From IMG/VR virus record IMGVR_UViG_3300028802_000219, positions 1-46,985 of that record: a stretch of 46,985 nucleotides of DNA; one strand, given 5' to 3'. Positions 1 through 45,434 of the stretch are shown here, piece by piece. The position numbers and the translations under genes are program-made. The notes under the pieces were generated by a model. That model did not search any database, was not told the origin of the DNA, and saw only the letters and a program-made list of their open reading frames with translations. This stretch comes from a virus. Position 1 is the stretch's first letter. Every line of letters begins with the position of its first letter.

Positions 1-1
1 A

Positions 2-319
2 GACGTCCACATCGTGGACGTCAAGTCGGGTAAGAACACGTACCCCGAGCATGCCCTTCAGGCCACGGCGTACTCGCTCGGCGAGTTCATCGGCAAGGAC
101 AACGTCGTGGACAAGGAAGCCACCGAGTTGCTCCACCGGGTGAACAGCATCTCGTTGCTTCACCTCACGCCGATGGGCTGGAAGTGGCAGCACATCGACA
201 TCGACCGTTACATGGTCATCGCCTTCAACGGGCTGCTCGCCTTCGCCAAGTGGGCACACGCGCATCCCGACATGGAAGAGTTGCTGCTCGACGTGCAGGA
301 AGGCAAGGCACCGGCATGA
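2..319 (+). CDS. RecB/Cas4-like PD-(D/E)XK nuclease, 3' part (continues from 46371)
   Basis: This is the C-terminal part of the nuclease whose start lies at 46371; the reading frame is open to the window edge and continues across the circular junction. Joined, the protein is 268 residues (46371-46985 followed by 128-319). The part seen here holds the DVK catalytic pair (joined residues D169 and K171) and the Q-x-x-x-Y motif (Q183, Y187), which define the RecB-like branch of the PD-(D/E)XK superfamily. Such phage enzymes process DNA ends in recombination or replication. The stop overlaps the ATG of the next gene (316). The partial nature is an artefact of where the circle was cut, not a broken gene. 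Confidence 0.85.
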   Translation, partial: DVHIVDVKSGKNTYPEHALQATAYSLGEFIGKDNVVDKEATELLHRVNSISLLHLTPMGWKWQHIDIDRYMVIAFNGLLAFAKWAHAHPDMEELLLDVQEGKAPA

Positions 320-10500: not shown

Positions 10501-11992
10501 ACTCGCCGGGAGAGTTGTAGTACTCGCTTGCCCCCACGCTGGCGGCGTCATAGATTTCAGCCCGCAGCGGGCCCGGTGCATGGTTGGCCCCGTGGCCGTA
10601 GATGCGGATGCGGAAGCGATGGGTGCCCCGGTCGTAGCCGGTCAGGAAGTTGGTGTCACCGGGCGCTTCCTCGTAGCCCTTGGTCAGGGTGAACGCGCCG
10701 TACACCCAGCCTGACTGGGCGCTGTACTCGTCAGCGGCCCTCATCCTCCATGAGTAAGCGCCCGCGCCGAGTGCGGCCCCGTTGTACAGGACCTTGATGA
10801 TGTTCTCCGGGACTCCCGGGGGGTATGGCAACAGGTCGCTGTCCCAGAGTGGTGGGGCGCTGTCCCAGATAGGGTCGCCGGGAGGGGTAGTAGCCCTCAC
10901 TTGGACCCGCACCCGCGATGGGTGGGCCGGACCGTCGGGGTCCGAATACGTGGCTTGGAATGTCGCTTCGGCCAAGGTCGCGAAGTTCCCCGCCACCGGG
11001 GAGGGGCTGGTTAGCACTGGTGGGTTTGACAACATGCGGACCGAGAGGAGGCTGGTCCACGGCGTGTCCTCGTTGCGCTGGTTCCTGACCTGCACCTTCC
11101 AGTCGTAGTAGGTCAGCGATTTGAGTGACCCGGGGGGGAGCGGAACCGAAAAAGTGTTCGTTGCCGTATCGTTTCCCGACCCAGCGACCCAGCCTGAGTC
11201 CCATGCGACTCCTCCTCCGGGGTTCATGACCGCGACGTGCGTGTAGGACAGGTGGTCCTCGGGCCGACCCGGCTCGTACGTCCCGGTGAAGTACGTCTGC
11301 TCGACCGGCGAGAAGTCACCGACCGGACCGTCGGCCAGCGTGACCCCGGGCCCACCCTTGGGCTCGTAGGTGATGCGCAAGACCGGGCGCATCGCCACCG
11401 TCGGGTGGTCCTTGGAGGCGAACACGTTGTCGTGGTAGTACGCCTCGGGGACGCTGTGCGCGACGCGCATCAGCAAGCCCCAGTTGGTGAGGCCAAGGCA
11501 CGCCTTGCCGTCGGCACCCAGCACCGTCTTCGGGGCGAGTCCCTTGTAGTGCGACGTGACATTCAGGGCGGTGAGTGCCCCGTTGCCGGTGTTGACCTTG
11601 TACCAGACCTTGTAGTTCGGGTCCTCGGTCAGGTCGTTGGAGTCAACGGTCCCGGTCCAGCCGTTCTCCCCGCCACCCCTCGGTGTCCACGAGTTGGGCT
11701 TGCGCGTAATCATGATGTCGGACTCGGTCGGGTGGCGACTGTCCGGCTTCATCGAGGAGTGGTCGGTCATCGAGTGGAGCAGCAGTTCGACCTTGGTGAT
11801 TTTCCCGACCTGCGCCCAGTCCGGGTCGAACTGCACGATGGAGACGTGCTGGTTGTTGTGGTTGGTTTCGTAGCCCGCGAGCAGGTGCTGTTCGGTCTGG
11901 GCTTGCTTCCACGCACTCCACGCAGCGCCCTCGCTGGAGCGCGTACGGCGCATGGCCGTATCCCGGGTCGCGTTGACCAGCAACTCCGCCAT
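7541..11992 (-). CDS. Large tail protein with collagen-like repeats, 1483 aa
   Basis: A multi-domain minor tail or hub protein. Residues 1-210 resemble the DNRLRE-like start of the fibre gene downstream (LRITYEP). FN3-like segments follow (about 225-320 and 325-430). The central part (about 450-830) holds a hub-like region with [14 protein letters not shown] and [18 protein letters not shown]. Two Gly-X-Y collagen tracts lie at about 887-900 and 1014-1057, and further FN3 modules at about 1065-1265. Collagen tracts form flexible triple helices in phage fibres. The ATG at 11992 starts directly before the Dit-like gene's stop. Likely links the tail tip to the fibre; subunit role is inference. 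Confidence 0.75.
8825..8951 (-). repeat. Collagen-like Gly-X-Y tract
   Basis: About 14 Gly-X-Y triplets rich in GPP and GPQ inside the large tail gene; a shorter tract lies at about 9290-9330. Encoded on the minus strand. Confidence 0.9.
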
Positions 11993-13731: not shown

Positions 13732-14784
13732 CTACGGGGTCAGGTCGGTCTGGGTCCAGCGCTCGCCCACGAGGTTCGTCGCGGGGCCAACTGCTGGCGT
13801 GCCGCTGAACTTGATGGTCGAGAGTCCCCACATCCCCTTCCAGCCCACCAGTCCACGCTGGGCCAACGGGTCCGCGTGGTCGCCACCGGGAGCAACCCGG
13901 TACGCCTGAATGGTCTGGTAGTCGCCCCAAGCGAAGAACTCGGGGCCGAAGATGATGGACTTGTCGTTGAGGACCCGGGTGGACTCCATGAAGCGGATGC
14001 CCCGGAACTTCCCAATCTCCCCGTTGAGAAGCGCCGTCGTGTTGGCGTACTTCATGGTGTCGGTCCAGCCCAACTCACCGACCTCGGCCATGATGAGGCT
14101 CGCGTCGGTCGGGCTGATGACCGCGTGATAGGTCTGGTCGGGGAACATCGGGACCTCGGCAATCTTCATTGCCGTCACGACGTCCACGATGCGACCGACA
14201 GCGGTCGTCTTGGACGAGGTGATGCCGATGCCGTTGTCCGTGCTGGACAGCAGCGTCGCGATGTCCTTCTCCAGCGTGTCGATGGCGTTCCACGCGACCC
14301 TCTCAGCAGCCTGAGAGTAGAGGTCGAACGGGGAAATCATGTCGGCGAGGTCGGAGATGGCGACCAACTTCCCCTTCTGGGTGCCGAAGAAGGTCTGGCT
14401 GTCGAACTGCATCCGCTCCGACTCGGGCGGGACGCCTTCCAGCAGGGGTACTGCCGGAGAGAGGTCCGCGAAGGCGGAGAAGGTGAAGCCCTTGGTGCCC
14501 GGGACGGACTTGGCCCTGATGTAGGACCCGAACTGCGCGATGACGGGCTTGCTGCGCAGGTTCTCGATGATGTTCTTGACGACGAGGTTCGTGACGATGG
14601 CCGCGAACTTCGCATCGGTGTTGCCACCGGACGAGTTCGGGTTGTACGCCACGCCCGCGACGCCCGCTGCGGTCGTGCCCGCATTGGACATCGGAATGGG
14701 CTGGATGTTTACCGCAGCATCCCAGCCCTGCATACCGCCTTGGCTGGAGCCAGCGCCGCTGGCAGTGCCAGTCGTATTCGCCAT
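13732..14784 (-). CDS. Major capsid protein, 350 aa
   Basis: Size, position after the scaffold candidate and sequence style fit an HK97-fold major capsid protein of the N4-gp56-like kind. An early segment reads VTNLVVKNIIENLRSKPV, followed by an E-loop-like stretch (PGTKGFTFSAFADLSP, then GTQKGKLVAISDLADM). The long helix WNAIDTLEKDIATLL and a P-domain with YHAVISPTDASLIMAEV come next. AGGAG lies eight bases before the ATG. A Gly/Ser-rich N-terminal arm (about 45 residues) is shared with the protein at 3280-3762. No protease or cleavage site is obvious. Confidence 0.85.
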   Translation of the reverse strand: MANTTGTASGAGSSQGGMQGWDAAVNIQPIPMSNAGTTAAGVAGVAYNPNSSGGNTDAKFAAIVTNLVVKNIIENLRSKPVIAQFGSYIRAKSVPGTKGFTFSAFADLSPAVPLLEGVPPESERMQFDSQTFFGTQKGKLVAISDLADMISPFDLYSQAAERVAWNAIDTLEKDIATLLSSTDNGIGITSSKTTAVGRIVDVVTAMKIAEVPMFPDQTYHAVISPTDASLIMAEVGELGWTDTMKYANTTALLNGEIGKFRGIRFMESTRVLNDKSIIFGPEFFAWGDYQTIQAYRVAPGGDHADPLAQRGLVGWKGMWGLSTIKFSGTPAVGPATNLVGERWTQTDLTP

Positions 14785-14796
14785 TGGGTTCTCCTA

Positions 14797-15417
14797 TCAG
14801 AACCCGGAGCCGGTCATCCTTGCACGGTCCCGTGCATCCTGACTGGGGGCGAGGTTCCTCAACTCGTTGAGGAGTTCGTCCTTGGTCATCTCAGCGATGG
14901 GCTTGTTCGTGACGGTCTGCCGCACCGGGTTGTTTGCATCGACGTGACCAGTTGGTTCCGGTCGAGGCGGCGCGGCAAAGGTTGCGTTCAGTCGGGCCAG
15001 CGTCTCGTCGCGGGATGACACCCACATGGGGTCATCGGGTGCGACCTCCCCGGCCAGTGCCGGGAACTTGAGCCTTCGCTCTGTGGTCTGTCGGGCCTGA
15101 CGTTCGACTTCCAGTTCTCGCTGCGTCGCTTCGTAGCGTGCCTTGTACGAGGGCTCCCCGTTGCTCTGAACGGGCTGCCCGTCTGCGCGTGCCTCGACAG
15201 AACGCTGGAGTTGCTCCATCTGCGAACGCAGACTCTCAACCTCGGCGTTGTGCGCACGGTCGCGCTGGCTGAACCGGTTACGCCAGATGGCCTCGACATC
15301 TTCGGGTGTCTGAGGAACGGGGGGAGCGGAACCCTCGGGAGCCGCCTCTGCTGGGGCTGCTGCGTCGGGCTGCGCCTGACCGTTCGTCAGGGCCGGATTG
15401 TCGGGCGATAGGGCCAC
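14797..15417 (-). CDS. Capsid scaffolding protein candidate, 206 aa
   Basis: An acidic, Ala/Pro-rich N-terminus is followed by a coiled-coil stretch (about residues 45-120, RNRFSQRDRAHNAEVESLR then ELEVERQARQTTERRL) and a short C-terminal helix (MTKDELLNELRNL). This is the classic layout of a phage scaffold, and the gene lies 12 bases upstream of the capsid gene. GTG 15417 is preferred because GGAGG lies eight bases upstream; an earlier GTG at 15447 lies inside a dyad. Not assigned to a family by sequence alone. Confidence 0.7.
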   Translation of the reverse strand: MALSPDNPALTNGQAQPDAAAPAEAAPEGSAPPVPQTPEDVEAIWRNRFSQRDRAHNAEVESLRSQMEQLQRSVEARADGQPVQSNGEPSYKARYEATQRELEVERQARQTTERRLKFPALAGEVAPDDPMWVSSRDETLARLNATFAAPPRPEPTGHVDANNPVRQTVTNKPIAEMTKDELLNELRNLAPSQDARDRARMTGSGF

Positions 15418-15430
15418 CGCTGTTACCTCC

Positions 15431-15463
15431 ACTTGATACCACACCACTGGCGTGGTGCCAAGT
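15431..15463. promoter_or_regulatory. Imperfect dyad upstream of scaffold/capsid
   Basis: ACTTGATACCAC (15431-15442) and GTGGTGCCAAGT (15452-15463) form 12-base arms with two mismatches around a 9-base loop. On the minus strand a TAGACT (-10-like) overlaps the giant gene's stop just upstream, so the dyad would lie at the start of a capsid-operon transcript. It could be an operator or hairpin. No good -35 is seen. Confidence 0.5.
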
Positions 15464-15467
15464 GAGT

Positions 15468-18400
15468 CTAACCCCCGCCACCAATACGCTCGACAACATT
15501 CTCGTACTCATCGCCCAGCGTGTTTTGAAGTTCCTGCACGGTGTCGGGCGAGACGTCGCTCGCGGGCTGCTCGCGGTCCGGTGTGACCTGCTGAACGGAA
15601 CTGGACTGCTGGAACTGCTGCTGCTCGGCGGGGACGTGGTTGACGACCGGCGGGTTGAAGTCCGGGTTGGCGTTGATTTCTTCCTCGGTTGCCCGCACGT
15701 TCTCGCCCTGCAACGCACCGACCGTCTTGCCGATGAGTCCCGGGTAGGACAGCAGCGTCTCGGCACCACGGGCCGGACCGGCGGTGTACGACAGGGTGTC
15801 CCCAATCATCCGCTGGTAGTCGATGTCGCTGATGAACGCGTTCCATGCGTTGTAGCCCTCGGGCTGCTCGCCGTTCTGGTCCTTCTGAAGGTTGGTCGCC
15901 ACGCCCTCGATGTAGCGCCGGACCCACAGCGGACTGTTGACCGGCAGGTCCCATGGCACGCCCGGGACCAGCATGCTGATGGCCCGCAGCATGTCCTCGT
16001 TCTCGGCCATGAACGCCCGCAGTTCCTCGTCGTTCTCGATGGCGTTCATCGTGTGCTGGTACATCTTGTTGGTCAGTTGGAAGGCGACCAGCGGGGTCTT
16101 CATCCCGAACGGGCGGGCCATCAGGAACTCGACCATCTCGGGCAGGACCTTGCCCCACATGTAGGACAGCGGGTAGAGCCCGAAGTACGGGTGGTTGAGC
16201 GAGCGCTCCAGCCACGAGCGGTCGCCCTTGAAGTGGACGAGGTCCTTGCTGGTCTGGTCGGCACGCCGATGGGCGGCGTACATCCACTTGATGGCGTTCT
16301 CCTCGTCCACGTCGTAGCCGTACGGGTTCTTGCCCACGGTGGACTGGTCGATGGAGTCGAACAGAGCCTTCGTCTGGGGGTCTAGAGTTACCGGTGCGCT
16401 GGTCGCGCTCGGCCTCACCGGCGCGACTGGCGCTGCTTCCGCGAACTCCCCGATGTCCACCGGGACACGCGCCGGAGCAGCCGGTGCAGCCGGTGGCGGA
16501 GCCATCTCAATGGCCTCCTCGGGGGGATTGTCCAAGACGTGGTTCTCGGCCTTGGAGTCGAGCGAGTCAAGCAGGTCGTCCCACGTGTCGGAGCGGGCTT
16601 GACTGAACTCCTCAGCATCATCGAAGTCCCCGCGCTCCATGCTCCGGTACTCGTCCAGCAGGTTCAGTTCGTCGGTGACGTCGATGCCCTGCTGCTCCAG
16701 CGAGACGAGGTCGTTCTCCATGCGCGGCCCGTTGCGGGCACCAGCGTTGTCCCACTTGGTGTGCATCGCCCGGATAGCGTTGGCCTGAGCGGTGACCTCG
16801 TCCAGCCCAGCACCAGCCGGGGCAGCGGCTGCGACGGGGGGAGCAACCTCCTCGACCGGAGCCAGTTGTCGGGCTCGCTCTGTTTCATGTGCAACACGAC
16901 GGGCCTCGTAGGCACCCATCGCCTCGCGGTGCATCCGCTCCTCGGCGGTGTACTTGGTCAGGTCCGGCTCGATGCGCCGCTTCTTGTCCTTGAGGACCTT
17001 GCTGTAGTAGGCAGCCAGTGGCTCCAAGGCAGGGTTCTTCATGGCCTTCGGGCCAAGGCGCAGATACTCGACCAACTGGTCGGCGAGGTACTCCTGCTCG
17101 TCAGTCGTCAGGACGTGCGAGCGGGACTTGGCCCCCAGTTGCGGCAACGCCCCCTCACGACCGGCGTACGCAGCCTTCGCCCGCCGCAACGCGGACGGGT
17201 GCAGGTAGCGATTGATGAAGTCGTGCGCCTCCTCGTGCGCGAGCGTGTCATCAAGCCGCCGCTTCGGGTTGATGTACACCTGAGCCCGGACCGGACGGCC
17301 CGGGGCACTGGTGCTTAGAGCGCGTCCGGGGTCTGTGATGGCACCGGAAGGAGCGGCTCCTCGGGAGGTTCGCTGGTAGAACCGACGGCCTCCTCGGGTA
17401 GCGTCTCCTGCGGCGGTAGCGGCGGCTCGGGTTCCACGGGGGTGGGATTCGAAATACCCGGCGGGGTTTCCGACGTCAAAGTCGGCGTCTCCTGCACTGG
17501 CTCGGGCTGCTCGGTGGGCGGCAGTCTCCCGGCTTGCCACTCGCTGATAGGCTTCTTCCCGGACCATGCGCCCCCACTGGATACCTTCACGCTCCAAGTC
17601 TCCTCGGACTCGGGTTCCATACTCGTCACCTCCAAGGTGCTGGGTGTAGCCCTCCCCGTTCGGGTTGACCTTCCAGTCGTTCTCCATCTCGATGACTTCG
17701 GCGAAGCCACGGTCCACGTCGTTGGCACGGTTCGGGTCGAAGTGCGGAGAGTACACGCCGTTGTTGCTGCTGAAGTCGTACGCCCCGCCCTCGCGCTCAA
17801 GGACCAACTGCACGGCCTCGACGTCGTCGTACGAGTCAACCACGAGATTGGTGTCGATGTCGATGCGGTTGTGCTTAGGGTCGATGTCGCGGAACACGCC
17901 GAGGTGCGCGTTCGGGCGCTGAAGGTCGCCCCGGTTTGCGGCCACGAAGTCGCGGACCGCTTGCTTGAACTCCTCCTCGCCGACGTTCAGCGGCAGACTG
18001 ATGGTCCCGCCCTTGGGTGTGATGCCGGTCGAGAACGGGCCACCGCCCCGCTTGTCACCGTACGCCTTGGGCCGTGACCCATTGTGGAGGTCGATGGTCG
18101 CCCCGCCCCAGCCACCGTTCTGGTCTGGCTGGACGGCCTTCCACAGGTCGTCGGCGAGGTCCTCGATGTTGTCGTCGGCCCACGTGATGGGCTTGGGGTC
18201 ACGGAACGAGCCGTCGATGACGCCCTGCCCGCGCTTCTGCATCGCCACCTTGCGGGCACCCGTGCCCATCGGCTCGTTCGGGTCGATGTAGCGACCACGG
18301 GCGAAGCCGTCCGCGCCGTAGACCTGCGTATGCCACTCCCGCAACTGGACGTCGTCCATCCGCTTAGTGAAGGCGGGCAGTCCCTCGCCCTTGTTTGCCA

Positions 18401-21400
18401 CCACCCGGATGGCGTACGACCCGTCGGGCCGGACGATAAGGTCGGAGTCACCGAAGAAGTTGACGTCGCCCCTGCCGCCGACGCCCTCGGACAGTGTCTT
18501 GTGGATGGCGTCCATCTCGGCCTTGGGCATCGACGGCGGGAAGGACAACTCGACCATGTGGCGCACGCCGTTGGCAGCCGTCGGCTTGGTCGCCGTGGAC
18601 CGGGTTGCCCGCACTCGGGACTGGTGACCCAGTGAAGCCAAGATGGCGAGGTGATGGCGGATGCCGGTTGGCGAGGCCATGACTTCGAAGTTCGTGGCAG
18701 AGCCCAGCCGTCCGTCCGGCCAACGGACGACTGAGCCGTGGGATGTTATGACGTGGACGCCGGACAGGCGGGCTGCCTCGTCGCTGACCTGACTGCCGAT
18801 GCGACCGGCGATGTTGTTGCTGGTGTCTTCGGCCAGCGACGGGTACATCCGGTCCATGACGGCGTTGCGTGAGGGCAAGGCATCGACCCGGGTCTGATAG
18901 ACGCTGTCGAAGAACGCCGTGCGCGGGTCACCTGTCGGGTCCTTGTAGACCTTCTTGGCCTTGAACCAGCCGAGCGCCTGAGCCTCGGCAGCGACCCAGT
19001 CATTGCGACCGAGGAAGCCCTTGCCGTCGTCCAGCGTATTCAGGTGGTCGGCAGCGTCGTTGTAGAACTCCACGATGTGGTCGTACTCAAGGCTGCTCGG
19101 CTGAGAGTTACCCGCCGGGACGGTGAATGACTCGTTCGTCTCCCGGTCGAAGAAGCGGAAGGTGGTGTTGTTGACCTTGGTGATGTCGTACTGGTCACCG
19201 TACGCAGCCTTCAGGTGGTTGAGCATCTTCTGGTCCACGAAGCCGACGTCGCGCTTGGCCCAGACGTCGCCCGCCGCAGCCGTCCACGTGCCGTTGGGGC
19301 CACGGACCGGTACCGTCCGTCCGTTCACGCCGATGAGCGAGTCCACGAAGTCGATGAGTTTCTGCCCCATCCCGGCTTCGCTGACGTAGCCCGTCTCCAT
19401 CAGGTTCTTGAGGTTCACGCCGTTCAGGCCAGCCACCTTGGTCAGCGCCTTGGCCTCGTCTGGCAGACCCTTGCCAGCCTTCAGACTCTCGACCACGTTG
19501 AGCATGAACTTCATGCCGTCCACCGGGCTGGTGTTCATCTGCGTGACACCAAAGGCCATCAGCAGTTGAGTCGCCAAGTGCTGGTCGTTGTCGTTGAGCG
19601 CCATGAAGCCGCGCCGCATGTCAACGTACCAGCCAGCATGTTCCGCCATCTCTTCGTCGGTCATGTTGGCGCGGAGTTCTCCGACCCATTCGTCCATCGT
19701 CTTGCGCCCACCGATGCGATGGGTCACCACGCCGTCGGCGTTCTTGGCAACCAAGCGCCCACCCGCCACACCACTGATGCTGTCCGGCGTGCCCAGTTCG
19801 GGGTCGGCTGCACGCTTGGCCCGCGCTTGCTGGTACTCGCGACCCTTCTTCTGGCCCGGGGTCAGGTTCTTGACCGCACTGGTCTTGCGGGCTGCCGTCT
19901 CGTGCCGCCGGATAGCCGCCGTCTCAGCGTCACCGATGCCGATGTCCGAGGGACGCAGGTTGTTGGAGATATAGCCGAACTCGTCCGGCTCGATGCCGCG
20001 AACAGCCGTCCCGCCCCGGGCGTACTCCTTGTGCAGGAAGACGGTGGTCGGAACATTGATGCCGGTCAGGGACTCGGGCCTCTCACGCGCCAACTGGAGC
20101 AGACCAGCGACCCGGTGGTTTCCCTCATCCACGGCAACGGTCCGGTCCACGCTGCTGTAGGTCAACTGGATGGGCTCATCCATGCCCCGGCTCTTGATGT
20201 CACGCGCCAGCGTGGTGAGTTCCTTGTCGGTCAGGCGCAGTTCATTGCCGACCTTGATGTCCTTGAGCAGCGACAGTGGGACCAACTCGGTGTGCTGGGC
20301 GAGGGCATGACGCTCCCACGACAGTTCGGCGACGGCATCAGGCAGCCCGATGTCGGGCATGTGCGGGGCACCAATCTGCGACATGGTCCCGCCGACCGCC
20401 ACGTGCATGTGGTTGGCGGGCAGCGTCTCCAGTCCCCGGGCCTCGGTCGCGTCGGCGATGAGTTGGAAGAGCGTCGTGTCCTTCCACTCACCGTGTTCGT
20501 TCAGCACCTGCGGGTGGCCGGAGAACTTGTCGGCCAGCGACTCGATGAGCGGCAGTCCCTCCATCCGGGCGATGGACCGGTGGTAGTCCATGTGCGCCGA
20601 CACCAACTCGCGGTTGCCCTTGTAGAAACTGTCGATGGCCCTCTCCCACTCCTTCTCGTCGGGATAGGTCATCCGCCACTTGGTCCGCTCGATGTACGTC
20701 TCGTCGGCCCCCATCGCCCGGAGCCGCTTGTCCAACCACTCCTCGGTGATGACCGTGTCGTTCGGGTTGAGGTAGCGCTGGCGCAACTGGCGGAAGGACA
20801 TCTTGGAGTACTTCTCGTCCATCTCCCCGCGCAGCGCGAACATGACGACCTTCTCCGACCAGCGTGTCTGGCGACCGACGAACGATGGCCGGAAGAAGTG
20901 ACCCGGTTCGGGGAAGCCACCCTGATGGGCCAGCACGGCGTCGAACGCGCTGTCCGGGTTGTTGCGTGCGAGCAAGTCGTTGAACCAGCGGACGGCCACC
21001 TCGCCGTCGCCCAACTTGGCACCGTCGTTGTAGAACGCACGAGCCGTGGCCCACGACACGGGCGACTCGGCCTTCATCATCCGGGCCATGTCGTCGCCGA
21101 CGGACGAGCGGAAGGCCAGCAACTGCCCGCGTGTCTTGATGCGGGCGACCTTGGTGTCGGTCAACAGCGCCGTCAGGGCACGACCGGGCTCGCTCGATGA
21201 CATCGCACCAGCCGCCGCGCCACCGGCCCGGATGAGGTTGGTGGCCTCAATCATGTCGCCGTTGTAGCGGATGCCCCCACGGAAGGCATCCATCATCACG
21301 GCAGTCTCAAACTCGGCGTTGCGAATCTCGGCGGTGCGCAGCGCCCTGCCCCGCCGGAACGCTTGCGCCCGCTCCATGACCCCGCCACGCTGCCGGATGG

Positions 21401-24335
21401 CCGACTTCACACCAGCCGTCGAACCGGTCAACGGACCGGCGAACTGGCCGGGAGAAATCATCCCGCGTGCGACCAGCAGGACGGGCGTCTCGATGCCTTC
21501 CTGCAACTGGAAGAACAGGTTCCACTTGAAGCGCACCATCGGGTAGTAGCGCTCGGAGATGGTGCCCGCCACGTTCGACCCGATGCGGTTGACTTCGAAC
21601 GCCTTGATGCGCCCGGTCACCTTCTGGCTCAGGCCGACCTTGCCCAACGAGCCCTCGTGCGCGAAGAAGATGGCCCGCTGCACCTCACGCGAGGTGACCG
21701 TGTTCTTCAGGTGGCGCGGGATGGCGACGGCGGCAGCCTGATACAACTCCTCCTGCTCCATGCCACGAGCCGAGGCGACCTTGGCCGTGTTGGCGGCAGC
21801 CCGGACCACGGACATGACCGCGTCCGACTGCTCGCGGGTCATCCCGAACTGCTCGGCCATGCGCTGGGCGAAGCGGCGGTTCTGCTCGATGACAATCTGC
21901 GAACCCGAGATTCTCTGGGTCATCTTGTGCAGGTGCTGGCGCAGGATGTTGGCGGGCATCACGTCGCCCATCCCAATCTGGCCCGCCCGGATGTAGTCCA
22001 TGAACGGGTCAGCCGAGACAATCTGGCCGTCGGCGTTGCGCCCGGTGCTGAACAGGTCCTCGTGACGCACACCGAGTTCGACCGAGTCACCGTACTTGGC
22101 CTTGAACTCACGCATGGCCGGGGTCAGGTTGGCTGGCTCCAGTGCCGTCGGCAACTGGTCGAAGTGCGAGTCGAGCAATCGCTCGATGGACGTCTTCAGG
22201 TCCTTGTCCACCTGCGACAGCGAGATGTTCCACTCCAGCAGGTCGTACTGCTGGACCATGTCACGCACCTCGGCGTACTTCTTGGCCTTGAGCAGTTTGC
22301 GCAGTTCCAGAGCCTTAGCCCGGGTCAACTGGGTGGGACCAAGGAAGATAATGCGGTTCACCCACTCGGGCGACTGCCCCTTCTTGAGCCCGTCGGCGAT
22401 GCTCTTGGCCCGGGCGGTGATGAGGTCATCGGCCATGCTGCCGTAGCGCATGAAGTGGACGACGCCCAGTTCCCGCTCGCCCATGTTCTTGGTGGCAGCA
22501 AGGGCATCATCGATGGAGATGCCGTACATCTTGACGAGGTCGTCGGCTGTCTCGACCCGGACGCGCTTGACGGCATCAGCCATCTTCTCGCCCTGTCGTG
22601 GCTGGATTTGAAGCAGGACCTTGCTGACCTTGTGCTTGGTCATCGTCGCGACGTCCTTGCCGTGGCGCGACAGCATGTCCATACCGAGGTTGGTGAGGGC
22701 AACTTCGTCCAACGAGTCGGCCCCGATACCCAACTTCAGGTGCGAGCGAGCAACCTGCTCACCCCCAATCTGCTGACCGACGTTGGCAAGACCGGTGCCG
22801 AGATGACCGCCCGACCGCTCCTGCGAGATACCGGCCTTCTCCAGCGCCGACATGACCTTGCCAATCTGGCGCTTGCCCAGCGCGTCGGTGCCACCGTTGA
22901 CGATGTGGACGCCGACGGCCTTGTTCGCCATCCGACCCAACTTGTCGCCACCGAACAAGGTCAGCGGGTCGAGCGCAATCTCGACCATCTGCATCCACTT
23001 GAGGACGTGCTGGTTGGCGACGAACGGGCGCTCCACCAGACTCGTCGCTTGCATCGCCTCGCGCACAGCAGCGTCGTTCGCCTTGAGTCCGTACTTGACA
23101 ACGTTCATGTCGGTGGCAGCAACGCCCTCGGGCAGGTGCCCGTACAACTGCCGCTCGGCAGCGGCAATCGCCGTGTTCTCAATCTCCTTGACGGCAGCGC
23201 TCTTGGCCCCGGCCTCGGCTGCTGCCTCGGCGGCGCTGATGATGCCCCGCTCGGCGGCTTCCTTGACGGCCTCCCGGGCAGCGACCTTGCCGACCTGCAC
23301 GATGACCTTGGCCGACCCCTTGGCCGTTATCATCGCCGCCTTGCCAACGATGAGTGGGGTGTAGGTCGTGATGTCAGTCGCAAGGTCCAGTCCCAACGAC
23401 GCCCCGGCGGCGATGGTGTTGGCCGCAATGTCGCCGACCAGTTCGAACGGCGTGTTGTCGCCGAACCCACGGATGGCCCGGATAGGACCGGACTGACCGA
23501 ACGGGTCGGTGATGGCGTGGCCCTCAAGGGTCAGCCGGTCAAGCGCCGTGTCGCGGGTGATGTTCCCCGCCCGGTAGTCCTCCCGAATCTTGATGAGTTC
23601 CTCGTTGCCCTCCAACTGCTCGTCGGTGCGTGACAGCAAGTCCTCGACACGGGTGCCACCAATGGGTCCGAACTGCGCCCCGGCGAGGAGACGCTGGCTG
23701 CTATAGGTCAGGTTCGACAGACCACCGATAACAGACGCCGTCAGGCCACCGAGGTTGTCGTCGTAGGGCGAGAAGGCCATCGCCGCGCCCAACTCGGAGA
23801 TGCGGTGGTCCTTGACCGTCTGCATCCGGGCGAAGTCCACCATCATCCGGGTGTTCTCAAACCAGTTGTTCTGGTCGGGCAGTCCCTGACGCTTGGCCTC
23901 GGCAGCGGCCCATTCGGTGTACTCAAAGCCACGTTCGCGGGCCATGTCAGCAGCGGCCTTGCGCTGCATGGCGATGACCGGCCCGATGCCGGGGACGGCC
24001 TCCAGCGGGAGCGGCATGTTACCCAGATTGCCAATCGCTCCGGCAATGCCCCCGAGAACAGGCACACCTTCGAACGCACCGGGCTTGCCTTGGAGTTCCT
24101 GCGACTTTGCGGTCACGGGACGGCCCATCAGGTTGACCGACATCTTGCCGATGTTGGAGTACGGGCGACGAACGTCGAGCGGCTGGTCGGCTGAACTGGT
24201 ACTCGGGGCGGGCGGCAGGTGCGACGTCGCGGACATCGCGTTGCGCGAGTAGTAGCGCGACGCACTGAACCCGCCGGAGGTCCCCTTGCCCCCACCGACC
24301 TTGCCAATGCGCTGCATCGACTCGTAGATGCCCAT
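15468..24335 (-). CDS. Giant polyvalent-type virion protein, 2955 aa
   Basis: A single open frame of 8.9 kb, about a fifth of the genome. The N-terminus (1-420) is Ala/Gly-rich and helical with possible membrane-active stretches (about 285-345). About 1355-1440 looks like a ParB/Srx nuclease-fold domain: LVPLSLLKDIKV, a helix, then DEGNHR (1403-1408). About 1545-1820 is a helical domain resembling DUF7178 in large phage proteins. Residues 2367-2371 are HEEAH with a downstream EYLADQLVEYL helix, a zincin-like site. The C-terminus (2600-2955) is helical. Such multi-enzyme polyvalent proteins are thought to enter the cell with the DNA. Its ATG overlaps the upstream stop. Confidence 0.75.
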   Translation of the reverse strand: MGIYESMQRIGKVGGGKGTSGGFSASRYYSRNAMSATSHLPPAPSTSSADQPLDVRRPYSNIGKMSVNLMGRPVTAKSQELQGKPGAFEGVPVLGGIAGAIGNLGNMPLPLEAVPGIGPVIAMQRKAAADMARERGFEYTEWAAAEAKRQGLPDQNNWFENTRMMVDFARMQTVKDHRISELGAAMAFSPYDDNLGGLTASVIGGLSNLTYSSQRLLAGAQFGPIGGTRVEDLLSRTDEQLEGNEELIKIREDYRAGNITRDTALDRLTLEGHAITDPFGQSGPIRAIRGFGDNTPFELVGDIAANTIAAGASLGLDLATDITTYTPLIVGKAAMITAKGSAKVIVQVGKVAAREAVKEAAERGIISAAEAAAEAGAKSAAVKEIENTAIAAAERQLYGHLPEGVAATDMNVVKYGLKANDAAVREAMQATSLVERPFVANQHVLKWMQMVEIALDPLTLFGGDKLGRMANKAVGVHIVNGGTDALGKRQIGKVMSALEKAGISQERSGGHLGTGLANVGQQIGGEQVARSHLKLGIGADSLDEVALTNLGMDMLSRHGKDVATMTKHKVSKVLLQIQPRQGEKMADAVKRVRVETADDLVKMYGISIDDALAATKNMGERELGVVHFMRYGSMADDLITARAKSIADGLKKGQSPEWVNRIIFLGPTQLTRAKALELRKLLKAKKYAEVRDMVQQYDLLEWNISLSQVDKDLKTSIERLLDSHFDQLPTALEPANLTPAMREFKAKYGDSVELGVRHEDLFSTGRNADGQIVSADPFMDYIRAGQIGMGDVMPANILRQHLHKMTQRISGSQIVIEQNRRFAQRMAEQFGMTREQSDAVMSVVRAAANTAKVASARGMEQEELYQAAAVAIPRHLKNTVTSREVQRAIFFAHEGSLGKVGLSQKVTGRIKAFEVNRIGSNVAGTISERYYPMVRFKWNLFFQLQEGIETPVLLVARGMISPGQFAGPLTGSTAGVKSAIRQRGGVMERAQAFRRGRALRTAEIRNAEFETAVMMDAFRGGIRYNGDMIEATNLIRAGGAAAGAMSSSEPGRALTALLTDTKVARIKTRGQLLAFRSSVGDDMARMMKAESPVSWATARAFYNDGAKLGDGEVAVRWFNDLLARNNPDSAFDAVLAHQGGFPEPGHFFRPSFVGRQTRWSEKVVMFALRGEMDEKYSKMSFRQLRQRYLNPNDTVITEEWLDKRLRAMGADETYIERTKWRMTYPDEKEWERAIDSFYKGNRELVSAHMDYHRSIARMEGLPLIESLADKFSGHPQVLNEHGEWKDTTLFQLIADATEARGLETLPANHMHVAVGGTMSQIGAPHMPDIGLPDAVAELSWERHALAQHTELVPLSLLKDIKVGNELRLTDKELTTLARDIKSRGMDEPIQLTYSSVDRTVAVDEGNHRVAGLLQLARERPESLTGINVPTTVFLHKEYARGGTAVRGIEPDEFGYISNNLRPSDIGIGDAETAAIRRHETAARKTSAVKNLTPGQKKGREYQQARAKRAADPELGTPDSISGVAGGRLVAKNADGVVTHRIGGRKTMDEWVGELRANMTDEEMAEHAGWYVDMRRGFMALNDNDQHLATQLLMAFGVTQMNTSPVDGMKFMLNVVESLKAGKGLPDEAKALTKVAGLNGVNLKNLMETGYVSEAGMGQKLIDFVDSLIGVNGRTVPVRGPNGTWTAAAGDVWAKRDVGFVDQKMLNHLKAAYGDQYDITKVNNTTFRFFDRETNESFTVPAGNSQPSSLEYDHIVEFYNDAADHLNTLDDGKGFLGRNDWVAAEAQALGWFKAKKVYKDPTGDPRTAFFDSVYQTRVDALPSRNAVMDRMYPSLAEDTSNNIAGRIGSQVSDEAARLSGVHVITSHGSVVRWPDGRLGSATNFEVMASPTGIRHHLAILASLGHQSRVRATRSTATKPTAANGVRHMVELSFPPSMPKAEMDAIHKTLSEGVGGRGDVNFFGDSDLIVRPDGSYAIRVVANKGEGLPAFTKRMDDVQLREWHTQVYGADGFARGRYIDPNEPMGTGARKVAMQKRGQGVIDGSFRDPKPITWADDNIEDLADDLWKAVQPDQNGGWGGATIDLHNGSRPKAYGDKRGGGPFSTGITPKGGTISLPLNVGEEEFKQAVRDFVAANRGDLQRPNAHLGVFRDIDPKHNRIDIDTNLVVDSYDDVEAVQLVLEREGGAYDFSSNNGVYSPHFDPNRANDVDRGFAEVIEMENDWKVNPNGEGYTQHLGGDEYGTRVRGDLEREGIQWGRMVREEAYQRVASRETAAHRAARASAGDADFDVGNPAGYFESHPRGTRAAATAAGDATRGGRRFYQRTSRGAAPSGAITDPGRALSTSAPGRPVRAQVYINPKRRLDDTLAHEEAHDFINRYLHPSALRRAKAAYAGREGALPQLGAKSRSHVLTTDEQEYLADQLVEYLRLGPKAMKNPALEPLAAYYSKVLKDKKRRIEPDLTKYTAEERMHREAMGAYEARRVAHETERARQLAPVEEVAPPVAAAAPAGAGLDEVTAQANAIRAMHTKWDNAGARNGPRMENDLVSLEQQGIDVTDELNLLDEYRSMERGDFDDAEEFSQARSDTWDDLLDSLDSKAENHVLDNPPEEAIEMAPPPAAPAAPARVPVDIGEFAEAAPVAPVRPSATSAPVTLDPQTKALFDSIDQSTVGKNPYGYDVDEENAIKWMYAAHRRADQTSKDLVHFKGDRSWLERSLNHPYFGLYPLSYMWGKVLPEMVEFLMARPFGMKTPLVAFQLTNKMYQHTMNAIENDEELRAFMAENEDMLRAISMLVPGVPWDLPVNSPLWVRRYIEGVATNLQKDQNGEQPEGYNAWNAFISDIDYQRMIGDTLSYTAGPARGAETLLSYPGLIGKTVGALQGENVRATEEEINANPDFNPPVVNHVPAEQQQFQQSSSVQQVTPDREQPASDVSPDTVQELQNTLGDEYENVVERIGGGG

Positions 24336-26983
24336 CAGAACTCCCGGATGCCGGTGGCCTTCTTCTCACGCCGGGGCGGGGCGTACAGCGTGGGCGGAGC
24401 GACGATAAGGTCGTCCTTGCCACCGTCGGCCTTGGCCGACTTCACGGGCGCGAGGGGCGGCGGAGCCTTGGGCGGCGGCGGCGACGTGGTCGGCTTGCCG
24501 GACGCATTCGGGCCCGCCTGTGGACCGGTCGGGAAGGTAGCCGGGATGGTGCCCTGCGAGAGAGCCTTGGCCCAACCGCCCATCACGCCCTGCTGCAAGT
24601 CCTTGAAGTTTCGAATCATCTGGTTCTCGCGGTTCCACTGGTCCATCGTCACGAACCCGGGGCCGAGGTCCTTGACCTGCTGCTGGTGCATCAGGTCCTT
24701 GATGTGGCTGGGCAGCAGGGCATCCGGGTTCTCGATAGCCAGCAGCCGGTTGCGCGTGGCCGGGTCGGCGTCGAGGGCGTCGTGGATAATCTTGTCGCGC
24801 TCGGTCGTCTGGTCACGCGTGAACGCCGCCTCCGCGCCACGCGGGTCCTCCAGCATCTCGCCCTTCTTGCGAGCCTCCAGCCGACCGTAGAAGTCACGCA
24901 CATCGCGGGCCAGACCGGCGGCGTCACCGTAGCCCTGCTTGGTCAACTTGTCGGCGATGGTCTGCGGGTCACCGGCCTTGGCAATCTCCCGGATGCGGCG
25001 GTCCACATCGGTCGTCTTGCGCAGGTAATCGGTCCGGGCACCCTCGGCTTCGTGCAGGGCAGCAGCCAGTTCCAGCGGCTTGGCCGTGCCGACCTCGGCG
25101 GTGATGGCAGCCCGCACGACGTTGGGGTCCATCGCGTAGGCAACGCCGGGGTCGGACTTGTTGGTCCGGTTGCTGTTGAGCCACGTCGCGAACGATGTGA
25201 GCCCAACCTTGTTGACCAACTTGTCGGCCTGACTACTGATGCGGAAGTCGTCATCGATAGCCAAGGTCGGGTCGTACGTCTTCGAACTCTTGTTGGGGTT
25301 CTCGACGGTGATGACGTAGCCCTCACGGGTGAGTTCGGGCTTGGCCCCACCGGTGAACATCCCATCGGGGTCGTTGGTCCAACGCTTCTTGCCGTCGCTG
25401 TCCCAGTACTGGGCCAAGCGCGTGCCGTCGGGCATCTCGAAGAAGTTGGCGATGTTCTCGTTGGACTTGGGCGTCGCCGAACTGCGCGTTGGTCGCCCGG
25501 TGTAGTCAAGTTCACCAGACGCAGTCGCGAACACCCGGGTCGGGATGACCGCCGTCATGACCTGACTGGTCGGGTAATCCTTGCCTTCGAACCTGACGCT
25601 CGCGTCCATGTGCCCGCCAGTCGGGACCCACGCCGCCCCGGCCTCGACATCCTTGCGCGGTACGACGCCGTAGCCAGCCTTCGGGTCGTCGGTCTGCTGC
25701 CCGTTGTTGTCCACGCGCATGATGACCCCGTCACCCGACAGCAGCAGACCCACCTGCTCGCGCAGACCGGCGTACGCCTCGACGTTCTTGGCCGTGTCGC
25801 CCTTGTTCTCGCCACCCAGCGACCCGGCCACGACACCGCGCGACGACTCCCACAGCGTCGGAGCGTTGATGTCGCCCTGCCCCGACAACGAGACGAGTTC
25901 GTTGTTGAGCCGCCCGGTCATGTCACTCAACCGGGGGTCTTGGGAGTTGATGGCCGCTTCGCGCACTTGGTCGTGGATGCCGGTCAGTTTCGCGGCGTAC
26001 TTCTGTGCCGCCATCCACGTATCGAGGGGCGTGACATCCTCGCCGCCCGTGTCAATCTCGTACTCCTTGTGCGCGTTCTCGTAGTCGGCCAGCGGACCGG
26101 CGGCGGTCGCGGTGTTGAACGCCGTGTTGCCCTTCTCGTACTGGGCGAGGAGAGTCTTAGCATCGCCCTTGTTGCCCGCCTTCTGGGCCTTCCTGATGCG
26201 TGCCTCCAAGCCCGCGTCCTTGTTGGTCTTCTCGGCATGCAGGGTGTCCCACGTCAGGACGCCGCTGAAGTTCGGGTTGCCCCACTTCTTGACGTGGGCC
26301 TTCAGGCGGTCGCGCTCGGGGGCGTACTTCGGGTCGGAGTTGAAGACCTCCATCAGTTGCTGCAACCGGGTGGCGTCACCTTCGAACGCACGCAGGTCAC
26401 CGAGGTCTTCCGTGGTCGTCTGGAGGATGCCCTCGCGCAGCGCGACGCCGGTCAGGGTTTCCATCATCGCGTCGTAGGCGACTTCCTTCTTGAGCGGAAT
26501 CTTGTTGGCCTCGCTGTTGTAGGTGGACTTGCGCCCACCACCGCCACCACCACCACCGCCACTGTGGGCCCGGTCCTTGTACTGGGCAGCGAGCGTCTTC
26601 ATCTTCCGCCACGCCTCGGAGTTCTGCGGCAACTTGGTCGCAGCCCGGGCGTAGAACGCAGCCATGCCGCCGTCGCTGACCTTGCCCTCGGCGTACTTCA
26701 ACTCCATCTTGGAGTTGTCCACGGCGAACGTGTACTCGGTCAGGCGCTGGTCCATCTCGTCGTACAGCGGGTCGTCCTTCGCCAGTCCATTGCGCCGGTC
26801 GGCGAGATGCTTGAGCAGGACTTGGTCGGTGACCTGCTTGCCTTCGAACTTGCCGCCCTTGTCCCACGAGTTGAGGATGTTGCGGTCACGGGTGGACTGG
26901 TACTCGCGAGCCATCGACACGATGGTCGCGGTCAGGTCCGGCGATGAGCGGGGGCGGCGACCGAAGCGGCCTCGGCGTGCCAC
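24335..26983 (-). CDS. Large internal virion protein candidate, 882 aa
   Basis: Not recognised. Residues 15-140 are basic and helical, followed by a run of nine glycines (about 142-150). The rest is helical with charged repeats (for example KAQKAGNKGDAKTLLAQYEKG) and a beta-rich middle (about 430-600). There is no transmembrane segment or catalytic motif. GTG start at 26983, overlapping the portal stop region. Between portal and the giant protein, this is the position of internal or ejection proteins in several short-tailed phages. A tape-measure role cannot be excluded, but there is no tail tube gene. Confidence 0.55.
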   Translation of the reverse strand: MARRGRFGRRPRSSPDLTATIVSMAREYQSTRDRNILNSWDKGGKFEGKQVTDQVLLKHLADRRNGLAKDDPLYDEMDQRLTEYTFAVDNSKMELKYAEGKVSDGGMAAFYARAATKLPQNSEAWRKMKTLAAQYKDRAHSGGGGGGGGGRKSTYNSEANKIPLKKEVAYDAMMETLTGVALREGILQTTTEDLGDLRAFEGDATRLQQLMEVFNSDPKYAPERDRLKAHVKKWGNPNFSGVLTWDTLHAEKTNKDAGLEARIRKAQKAGNKGDAKTLLAQYEKGNTAFNTATAAGPLADYENAHKEYEIDTGGEDVTPLDTWMAAQKYAAKLTGIHDQVREAAINSQDPRLSDMTGRLNNELVSLSGQGDINAPTLWESSRGVVAGSLGGENKGDTAKNVEAYAGLREQVGLLLSGDGVIMRVDNNGQQTDDPKAGYGVVPRKDVEAGAAWVPTGGHMDASVRFEGKDYPTSQVMTAVIPTRVFATASGELDYTGRPTRSSATPKSNENIANFFEMPDGTRLAQYWDSDGKKRWTNDPDGMFTGGAKPELTREGYVITVENPNKSSKTYDPTLAIDDDFRISSQADKLVNKVGLTSFATWLNSNRTNKSDPGVAYAMDPNVVRAAITAEVGTAKPLELAAALHEAEGARTDYLRKTTDVDRRIREIAKAGDPQTIADKLTKQGYGDAAGLARDVRDFYGRLEARKKGEMLEDPRGAEAAFTRDQTTERDKIIHDALDADPATRNRLLAIENPDALLPSHIKDLMHQQQVKDLGPGFVTMDQWNRENQMIRNFKDLQQGVMGGWAKALSQGTIPATFPTGPQAGPNASGKPTTSPPPPKAPPPLAPVKSAKADGGKDDLIVAPPTLYAPPRREKKATGIREF

Positions 26984-26984
26984 G

Positions 26985-28958
26985 TCAGCCGACTATCTTT
27001 TGCTGCGACAGCATCCGTGTGCGGGGCTCGCCCTCCGTCGGCGTCATCTGCTGCATCAGGAGTTGACCCTCGACCCCACCGGGCGGAGCGGTCGCTCCCT
27101 CCGGCCCCATCGTCGGTGCGCCCAAGGGAGCGCCCTCCGGCGGTGGCTCGCCCTCCTCGGGCGGTGCCATCGGCTGCTCGCCCTCGGCGTTGAGCATCGG
27201 CTGGCCTTCAGCGCCGCCGCCCAAGACCCGTTCAGCGGACAGCGCTTCCTGCTGCCGCCCTGCGGCTTCGGCGGCGGCTTCTGGTGCCGGAATCTGCAAC
27301 TGCTTCAGGACCGTCAGCATCTGGGCCATCGTCATGACCGCCGCCGGGTTCAGCGTCGCGTCCGTCTGCTCCTCACGGATGATGTCCTGCTCCAGTTCGG
27401 GGTCGTCCACGCCGACCCGGTCCATGCCGCGAGCCATCGACCACAACTTCTGGCCGACGAGGTTGCCAGCCATCGTCGCCGTCTCCATGTCGTCACGCGG
27501 CGTCAGGGTCGGCGGCTGGATGTCGTGCCGGTAGGCGCTGTTCAAAATCTCCTTGATGTCACGTTCCTTGGCACCCCACAGCACCTTGACCAGCGACCAG
27601 ATGTCGCGCCGCCACTGGTAGTAGAGGTCACGCGGCATGCGGATGCGGGCTTCGTAGTTAGCGACAAGCGCGTTGATGGCCTTGCCGGAACTCAGGACCT
27701 GCGGAGGAGCCAACCCGCGTAACAGGTCACTGAGTCCCGAGACATCGGCCAACTCCCGGTCGATACGACCAAGGTGTTGCTCAATCTGGAAGGCGGGCAT
27801 CCACGGGCTGATGGCCTCGATGCGGTTACCCGCACCGGGGGCCACGACTTGGTTCGGCGTTGGCCGCACCGACTGGCCCACGACGTCCGGCGCTTCGGGT
27901 CCGACCAACTGCCAGTACTGGCCGTTGATGGCACGGCTCATCATCTGAGCCGCCTCGGACATGCGCTCGTCCTTCTCCCGGATGAGTTGCTCGATGTCGT
28001 AGAACGCTGGCCGACCGATGGTCGTGCCCGGGATGAACGTGTTGGTGAGGGGAACGTAGGGCAAGCGGCCCTCGTACTCCGAGTGCTTCTTGCGCACGAT
28101 GAGCGCGTTACCCACGAACAGCGCGTTCCACGTCTCCATCTGGATGCCCTTGCCCAGTTCGAAGGTCGCACCCTCGACCGGCTTGCGGTACCAGTAGTCG
28201 TAGACCTCCAACTGGAGTTCGGCCTCGCCGGGGAAGAACGCCCGGGTCGTCTCGTGCGAGCCGACCCCGGCCACGTACGGGTACAGCGAGCCATCGGCCT
28301 CGTTGCGGCCCGTCTCGATGCGCAGCCCGTACTCCTCCTCGGCTGCGTCGGCGCTGATGAGGTAGGTGTAGACCGCCCAACTCAACTTGGTGTGGTCGGA
28401 ACTGGTCCAGCCCAGCCGCAGGTTGCGCGGCTGCTCCACGATGGACATGACCGGACGCTTCAAGTCGTCGGAGAACCAGACCTTGGCGGCGGTCCGGCCA
28501 TAGAGCGCCTTGACGAGGCACGCCATGTGACCCTTGAACTCGACGTTCTCGGTGTCCTTCCACGTCGTGTACAGGCGCTCGGCCATGTTGGCGACGTCGC
28601 GGGCGTGCGAACTCTCCTCGTCCTCCTCGGCAGAAGCGACGAAGTTCTCGACCGGCGGCACCGACGTGAGCGAGGCCGGGATGTCCACGTAACCGGTGTA
28701 GGCGTTGATGGACACGTGCGAGCGCCCGGGTGTGTTGGCGCTCTTGTGGTACGCCCAGTGCGACGCGCCGCCCTCAGTGAAGCCTTGCGGGAAGTAGAGG
28801 TTGTCGTACCTGTCGCACAGATTGCGCAGGACGTTCATCTCGGGGTCGCTGTCCCGGATGCGCCGCCGCATCTGGTCGAACGTCCGCAGTTCGTCTTCCG
28901 ACATCGACCCACCGGCCAGCATCGCTGCCCGATTGATGTCCAGAACGGCGACCGCCAC
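26985..28958 (-). CDS. Portal protein, 657 aa
   Basis: Its size, its place directly after TerL and the segment order fit the dodecameric portal. There is an acidic N-terminal helix, then strands with YGRTAAKVWFSDD and LRLGWTSSDHTKLSWA. The long stem/wing helices follow (EQLIREKDERMSEAAQMM; RIDRELADVSGLSDLLRG; NALVANYEARIRMPRDL). A Pro/Gly/Glu-rich tail (about 575-657) resembles barrel-region extensions. GTG start at 28958 with AGAGGTGA upstream. Five bases separate it from the TerL stop. Confidence 0.75.
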   Translation of the reverse strand: MAVAVLDINRAAMLAGGSMSEDELRTFDQMRRRIRDSDPEMNVLRNLCDRYDNLYFPQGFTEGGASHWAYHKSANTPGRSHVSINAYTGYVDIPASLTSVPPVENFVASAEEDEESSHARDVANMAERLYTTWKDTENVEFKGHMACLVKALYGRTAAKVWFSDDLKRPVMSIVEQPRNLRLGWTSSDHTKLSWAVYTYLISADAAEEEYGLRIETGRNEADGSLYPYVAGVGSHETTRAFFPGEAELQLEVYDYWYRKPVEGATFELGKGIQMETWNALFVGNALIVRKKHSEYEGRLPYVPLTNTFIPGTTIGRPAFYDIEQLIREKDERMSEAAQMMSRAINGQYWQLVGPEAPDVVGQSVRPTPNQVVAPGAGNRIEAISPWMPAFQIEQHLGRIDRELADVSGLSDLLRGLAPPQVLSSGKAINALVANYEARIRMPRDLYYQWRRDIWSLVKVLWGAKERDIKEILNSAYRHDIQPPTLTPRDDMETATMAGNLVGQKLWSMARGMDRVGVDDPELEQDIIREEQTDATLNPAAVMTMAQMLTVLKQLQIPAPEAAAEAAGRQQEALSAERVLGGGAEGQPMLNAEGEQPMAPPEEGEPPPEGAPLGAPTMGPEGATAPPGGVEGQLLMQQMTPTEGEPRTRMLSQQKIVG

Positions 28959-37181: not shown

Positions 37182-37393
37182 GCGCCACCCTGCACAACCT
37201 CAACGTCGGCCCGTTCATCGTCAGCGCAGGACTGCGCAAGGACGGTGGTCGCAGCGTCGAGGTCAAGTCCGATTGGTCCGACGGCGGGCCAATCATCGCG
37301 GCGCTCATCACGCCCGGTCCCATCGTCGTCGTCTTCCACCGGCCCACGCTCGATGCGTTGGCCGCTCAACTTGATGCCGACGAAGGACGTTAG
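37178..37393 (+). CDS. Hypothetical protein, 71 aa
   Basis: Coupled to the ribbon gene by ATGA overlap. Alternating strands (FIVSAGLRK, SVEVKSDW, PIIAALITPGPIVVVFH) then one helix. No motif. Last gene before the promoter of the MoxR gene. Confidence 0.6.
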   Translation: MSATLHNLNVGPFIVSAGLRKDGGRSVEVKSDWSDGGPIIAALITPGPIVVVFHRPTLDALAAQLDADEGR

Positions 37394-37409
37394 GCACACA
37401 TCAACCCAC

Positions 37410-37430
37410 GGTGGTACACTAGGTGCCACC
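37410..37430 (+). promoter_or_regulatory. Operator-like dyad with extended -10 before the MoxR gene
   Basis: GGTGGTAC and GTGCCACC (37410-37430) form an 8-base dyad with one mismatch around ACTAG. TGGTACACT inside it is an extended -10 element. The same build recurs before the VWA gene (40386), so one regulator may act on both. Confidence 0.6.
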
Positions 37431-37457
37431 GACCTACTCACAAGGAGACAGCACAAC

Positions 37458-45285: not shown

Positions 45286-45434
45286 CCGAGGAACTGCCCC
45301 ACCGGGACCGCTGCACCTGCGTCAAGGATGGCGTGCGATGCAGCGCCGGTCGGGCATCACCCAAGAACCGGAACGACCGCTGCGAGTCCTGCGCAGCGGG
45401 CCTTCACCAAGGCCACCGCAAGGAGACGGCGTGA
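45282..45434 (+). CDS. Small Cys-rich protein, 50 aa
   Basis: GTG start overlaps the HTH stop (GTGA). C11, C13, C20, C34 and C37 in a basic 50-residue chain suggest a zinc-ribbon fold. Its stop in turn overlaps the start of the RusA-like gene, so the three are coupled. Function unknown. Confidence 0.6.
   Translation: MTEELPHRDRCTCVKDGVRCSAGRASPKNRNDRCESCAAGLHQGHRKETA

What the first reader, a model, noticed from the sequence alone, without database searches (positions are those of the whole stretch)
15468..24335. A 2955-aa polyvalent virion protein takes up a fifth of the genome
The single frame combines a ParB-like fold segment (DEGNHR at 1403-1408), a DUF7178-like helical domain, an HEEAH zinc-protease site (2367-2371) and long unassigned regions. 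It lies between portal and scaffold. This is the style of polyvalent proteins, which are predicted to be injected and to act on host defences. More than half of the chain has no assignment I can make.
Basis: partly seen in the sequence, partly recalled or inferred. Interest (0 to 1): 0.75.

Follow-up and report, generated by a model that had tools for sequence, protein, structure and literature searches.

The report
Giant multi-domain phage polyvalent protein
One gene that fills 19% of a 46.9 kb uncultured phage genome encodes a giant multi-domain protein, with a ParB-type domain and a zinc-protease-type domain, that is probably packed in the virus particle and injected into the host; it is a new, sequence-divergent family of a kind already described as polyvalent proteins.

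Summary
Window 15468-24335 (minus strand) is one intact 2955-codon frame, 18.9% of a terminally redundant, apparently complete genome, in the late module between the portal and capsid genes. It is a real gene family: eight IMG/VR relatives (2402-3474 aa for the seven full-length ones; 23-63% identity by segment), under purifying selection (dN/dS 0.20 for one pair). The ParB call is supported: the predicted fold matches ParB/sulfiredoxin structures, and a relative scores above Pfam's ParB_N cut-off. The zinc-protease call is supported: every relative has exactly one HExxH, at the aligned place, with an invariant downstream glutamate; the profile matches a podovirus protein that carries Pfam LPD22 (large polyvalent protein associated domain). 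The zincin fold itself was not resolved. No DUF7178 match was found. Most of the chain stays unassigned, including a C-terminal module that is its most conserved part. Best reading: a packaged, ejected polyvalent protein, laid out like N4 virion RNA polymerase but without detectable homology to it, processed by its own zincin. Packaging, injection and action on host defences are inferred, not shown. New member of a known kind; no relative detected for it among 50,697 phage records.

The parts
15468..24335 (-). 2955-aa giant polyvalent-type protein gene
   Evidence: Intact frame; eight homologues; dN/dS 0.20 over 1950 codons for the pair P0003/P0006
20331..24335 (-). Residues 1-1335: N-terminal region, alanine-rich near 330-410, mostly helical where modelled (640-1335); proposed ejection part (inferred)
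   Evidence: Predicted helices in residues 640-1300; conserved across full-length homologues; only weakly hydrophobic segments
20013..20297 (-). Residues 1347-1441: ParB/sulfiredoxin-type domain, DEGNHR at window 20112-20129
   Evidence: VIA-align Z 5.3-6.8 to sulfiredoxin, ParB, Noc, KorB and PadC chains; homologue P0007 has PF02195 ParB_N at 1.9e-7 at the aligned place; lowest dN/dS of the segments, 0.105
18846..19883 (-).
   Evidence: 51-64% identity to the window copy among four homologues; no Pfam or NCBIfam match; dN/dS 0.12
17646..18803 (-). Residues 1845-2230: alpha/beta region with ferredoxin-like elements
   Evidence: Model pLDDT near 80 in its first part; matches to ferredoxin-like folds, top phage SAM lyase Z 8.2; BFVD hits of the model include proteins named as large polyvalent protein associated
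16971..17333 (-). Residues 2335-2455: zincin-type metallopeptidase domain; HEEAH at window 17223-17237, third-ligand candidate E2415 at 17091-17093
   Evidence: H2367, E2368, H2371 and E2415 invariant in nine homologues; hhalign probability 92.6%, E 4.5e-7 to UFJF_PfDIW6 gp16
16401..16928 (-). Residues 2470-2645: variable stretch with Pro/Ala-rich parts; homologues carry or lack inserts here
   Evidence: Composition; absent in P0004, expanded in P0002 and P0005
15666..16388 (-). Residues 2650-2890: C-terminal module (RSWLERSLNHPYFGLYPLSYMWGKVLPE), the most conserved part; proposed packaging module (inferred)
   Evidence: About 42 invariant columns in nine homologues, 45-46% identity over 2701-2800 in the two most distant ones; no Pfam or significant PDB match
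26985..28958 (-). Portal protein gene
   Evidence: phrog_156 portal, E 3.7e-12
24335..26983 (-). 882-aa gene of unknown function; its stop overlaps the giant's start codon by one base
   Evidence: No meaningful family match; overlap read directly
14797..15447 (-). 216-aa gene, scaffold candidate by position
   Evidence: Position; weak phrog_1473 head morphogenesis, E 0.057
13732..14784 (-). Major capsid protein gene, N4-gp56 type
   Evidence: phrog_1357, E 2.4e-18; 24-26% identity to podovirus capsid proteins

Best explanation
The gene encodes a virion-associated polyvalent protein of a podovirus-type phage. Proposed working: the protein is made late and packed into the head, the highly conserved C-terminal module serving as the packaging or docking part; on infection it leaves the head with the DNA, the N-terminal helical region taking part in ejection; the zincin (H2367, E2368, H2371, E2415) then cuts the chain, or cut it earlier in the head, in or near the variable stretches that flank it, and so frees the ParB-type domain and the other modules to act on nucleotides, DNA or host proteins early in infection. 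Shown by tools: intact conserved gene, position in the late module, ParB-type fold, conserved zincin residues and profile relation to a podovirus protein bearing an LPD domain, module gain and loss between relatives. Inferred: packaging, ejection, self-cleavage and any anti-defence action.
For: Late-module order portal, 882-aa gene, giant, capsid, with ORFs of matching size around the giant in the relatives whose flanks were read. Family of nine under purifying selection. ParB-type fold and PF02195 in a relative at the aligned place, plus a second copy. Exactly one HExxH in each of nine proteins at the aligned place, plus invariant E2415. Zincin profile matches UFJF_PfDIW6 gp16, E 4.5e-7, a protein with LPD22 at 4.9e-22 that lies in the structural module of an isolated podovirus just after internal virion protein genes; the same profile against three other phage giants gives under 1%. 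Modules come and go: P0002 has an inserted ParB-like domain, P0007 a second ParB, P0008/P0009 lack ParB but keep the zincin residues. BFVD structural hits include proteins named large polyvalent protein associated. The literature defines polyvalent proteins by this style and proposes processing by their zincins (PMC5512222).
Against: No Pfam polyvalent-protein domain matches the window protein directly; the LPD22 protein shares only the zincin with it. The zincin beta sheet was not resolved and no zincin came up in fold searches. No virion or activity data exist for this uncultured phage. Both models have low mean pLDDT (55 and 59).
Confidence: 0.72

Rival explanations
1. It is primarily a structural ejection (internal core) protein of a short-tailed phage, like the large internal virion proteins of other podoviruses; the ParB and zincin modules are accessory or serve only assembly, and no host target is attacked.
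For: No tape-measure-like gene was recognised in the late module, and capsid and portal relatives are podoviral; the N-terminal 1335 residues and the C-terminal module are conserved in all full-length relatives while ParB is dispensable.
Against: ParB and the 1485-1830 domain show the lowest dN/dS of the segments measured (0.105 and 0.121), and some relatives gain extra ParB modules, which suits effectors better than structure alone. The two readings overlap, as N4 virion RNA polymerase is both.
Confidence: 0.2
2. The zincin is mainly a head-maturation protease that cuts capsid, scaffold or giant-protein precursors during assembly, so the giant is an assembly protein and not an injected effector.
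For: The gene lies next to the scaffold candidate and capsid genes; no other prohead protease was recognised among the late genes scanned; P1 DdrB is processed before packaging (PMC5512222).
Against: It would not explain the ParB modules or the module turnover; the profile match is to the zincin of a protein with an LPD domain.
Confidence: 0.08

Closest known systems
Polyvalent proteins of phages (Iyer et al. 2017, PMC5512222), e.g. P1 DdrB
   Same: Large multi-domain late-gene product combining a ParB-type domain and a zincin-type protease
   Different: No match to the Pfam models MPTase-PolyVal, LPD38 or ddrB-ParB; the ParB domain of a relative matches the general ParB_N model instead; most of the chain is unassigned
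Coliphage N4 virion RNA polymerase gp50 (3500 aa)
   Same: Giant single chain in a genome with an N4-type capsid protein; helical N-terminal part, middle enzymatic part, HExxH in the C-terminal part
   Different: No homology by profile comparison; no RNA polymerase found; a ParB-type domain lies in the middle part
Pseudomonas podovirus UFJF_PfDIW6 gp16 (2039 aa, LPD22)
   Same: Related zincin domain; in the structural gene module of a podovirus
   Different: Zincin near residues 808-910, LPD22 at the N-terminus, no detectable match to the helical, ParB or C-terminal modules

Membership tests
Phage polyvalent proteins (class) | Large chain combining domains of disparate activity | tested here: met
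   ParB-type fold (PF02195 in a relative) plus zincin-type site in one 2955-aa chain
Phage polyvalent proteins (class) | Encoded among late or virion genes | tested here: met
   Between portal and capsid genes
Phage polyvalent proteins (class) | Packed in the virion and transferred with the DNA | not testable with these tools
   Needs virion proteomics and an ejection assay
Pfam MPTase-PolyVal (PF18818) | Match to the curated model | tested here: not met
   No match in ten records at E up to 10; the model rang only below its cut-off in 3 of 14 control genomes
Zincin-type metallopeptidase (superfamily) | HExxH plus downstream glutamate, invariant in the family | tested here: met
   H2367, E2368, H2371, E2415 invariant in nine proteins
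Zincin-type metallopeptidase (superfamily) | Zincin core fold with beta sheet and ligands in place | tested here: inconclusive
   Helices with HExxH and E predicted, sheet not resolved, pLDDT about 60-70; weak Peptidase_M78 0.022 and SprT-like 0.079 in P0007
ParB/sulfiredoxin superfamily | ParB/Srx fold | tested here: met
   Model residues 708-802 align to many ParB/Srx chains, Z 5.3-6.8, 74-88 residues, rmsd mostly 2.2-3.7; Z of this size alone can be a common arrangement, but PF02195 above cut-off in P0007 at the aligned place agrees
ddrB-ParB (DdrB-like) | Match to the curated Pfam model | tested here: not met
   No such match among Pfam-A hits for the segment at E up to 5
LPD38 (PF18857) | Match to the curated model | tested here: inconclusive
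   No match in ten records, but the model rang in no control genome
N4 virion RNA polymerase family | Profile similarity to gp50 including the polymerase | tested here: not met
   hhalign probability 0.1-0.7%
DUF7178 | Match to the curated Pfam model in residues 1485-1850 | tested here: not met
   No Pfam match at E up to 5

The most novel reading that the evidence does not exclude
The alpha/beta region 1845-2230 is a SAM lyase-like domain, so that this protein would deliver a ready-made SAM-degrading antirestriction enzyme, together with a ParB-type nucleotide switch, from the virion into the host before any phage gene is expressed.
Probability: 0.04. Interest if true: 0.75.

Novelty: new member of a known kind. 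Interest (0 to 1): 0.42.

Why it matters
It adds a sequence-divergent family of giant polyvalent proteins, with no relative of this protein detected in 50,697 phage records or in PHROGs, to a class whose members are mostly known by prediction. Its nine members show which parts are fixed (N-terminal region, 1485-1830 domain, zincin, C-terminal module) and which come and go (ParB copies, inserts), which gives testable guesses about packaging, cleavage and effector parts. The most conserved part, the C-terminal module, has no known relative and is a candidate packaging part.

Tried and rejected
Chance frame: rejected by nine homologues and purifying selection. RNA polymerase or N4 gp50 homology: no profile match. 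Pfam, PHROGs and NCBIfam scans of the protein or its pieces: no meaningful match in the window copy; MPTase-PolyVal and LPD38 in ten records: none. PDB sequence-profile searches: zincin best E 0.4 (aminopeptidases, aligned on HExxH), ParB best E 1, C-terminal module best E 0.033, none significant. SAM lyase match (Z 8.2): kept only as a lead, since other ferredoxin-like folds follow at Z 5-7, the alignment spans a broken stretch of the model, and function was not tested. ADP-ribosyltransferase-like inserts in P0002 and P0007, seen by eye: no Pfam match, so not claimed. Stand-alone ParB-like gene 43994-44917 as a source of the ParB module: no profile similarity. Search of genome contigs with the alignment: no relative. 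Giants of Streptomyces phage Abafar and Paenibacillus phage API480: no profile match to the zincin. Fold searches named no zincin, but that part of the model was barely tested.

Full report
Observation. The frame 15468-24335 is on the minus strand and codes for 2955 residues with one terminal stop. The contig ends overlap by about 126 bp, so the genome is about 46,859 bp, probably complete, and the gene is 18.9% of it. The start codon overlaps the upstream stop by one base.

Surroundings. Reading along the minus strand: 560-aa terminase candidate by position, without a meaningful family match, portal (phrog_156), 882-aa unknown, the giant, 216-aa scaffold candidate, major capsid protein (phrog_1357; called N4-gp56 family in PMC13299392), 260 and 315 aa (phrog_5577 minor tail), then two large fibre-type proteins. 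Capsid relatives in isolated phages are those of Streptomyces, Bacillus and Paenibacillus phages, including podoviruses, at 24-26% identity; I recognised no tape-measure protein.

Relatives. Eight relatives came from viral contigs (two contigs carry the same protein): 2402-3474 aa for the seven full-length ones, and one fragment. The window protein has no match in 50,697 phage records, and the genome-contig scan found none. Alignment of nine gives 158 invariant positions. For the close pair P0003/P0006 dN/dS is 0.20 over 1950 codons, lowest in ParB (0.105) and the 1485-1830 domain (0.121).

ParB. The window copy has no Pfam hit, but the predicted model (mean pLDDT 59; mostly 65-86 in this segment) aligned over residues 1347-1441 to sulfiredoxin, ParB, Noc, KorB and PadC chains, Z 5.3-6.8. 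That Z range alone can reflect a common arrangement; what settles it is that relative P0007 passes the ParB_N cut-off at the aligned place (1.9e-7) and in a second copy (8.1e-7). P0002 has a further ParB-like insert (hhalign 76%). P0008 and P0009 lack ParB.

Zincin. At least one HExxH would arise in about 9% of shuffles, but each of nine proteins has exactly one, at the aligned place, with E2415 also invariant. The profile matches Pseudomonas podovirus UFJF_PfDIW6 gp16 at 92.6%, E 4.5e-7, across 98 columns including both motifs; that protein carries LPD22 and sits in the structural module after internal virion protein genes. Three other phage giants give under 1%. The beta sheet was not modelled and fold searches named no zincin.

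Other parts. Residues 1845-2230 have ferredoxin-like elements; the top solved match is phage SAM lyase, Z 8.2, which I treat as a fold lead only. Foldseek in BFVD gave eight hits at E up to 0.001, one of them named large polyvalent protein associated, and another so named at 4.3e-3. The C-terminal module is the most conserved and has no significant match. DUF7178 is not supported.

Reading. The layout resembles N4 virion RNA polymerase, which PMC5512222 describes as a helical N-terminal injection part, a middle enzyme and a C-terminal part with HEXXH needed for packaging; but no homology was found. The same paper describes ParB plus zincin in P1 DdrB and proposes self-processing by such zincins. 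I therefore place this protein in the polyvalent class by style and by a related zincin, while noting that no Pfam polyvalent model matches it and that virion presence, injection and action on host defences are untested.

Noticed in passing
window 1-127 and 46860-46985: Contig ends overlap by about 126 bp, so the record is a circularly assembled or terminally redundant, apparently complete genome; relative contig G005 opens inside its giant gene.
   Followed up: partly
window 43994-44917: Separate ParB-like gene (phrog_1033, E 1.1e-6; weak DUF6551) without detectable profile similarity to the giant's ParB domain.
   Followed up: partly
window 37245-38861: ATPase gene matching phrog_249 (porphyrin biosynthesis, CobS-like by my reading; E 1.4e-32) on the plus strand.
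   Followed up: no
window 45338-45907: RusA-like Holliday junction resolvase (phrog_140, E 7.6e-27).
   Followed up: no
window 7541-11992: 1483-aa fibre-type protein with collagen repeats and weak Ig/fn3-like matches.
   Followed up: no
L001 14847-15141 and the P0007 insert in L038: Inserts that look like ADP-ribosyltransferase domains by eye, without a Pfam match.
   Followed up: partly
L051 4446-9380: Streptomyces phage Abafar has an unannotated 1644-aa protein between portal and N4-type capsid genes; no profile match to this family's C-terminal half or zincin.
   Followed up: partly
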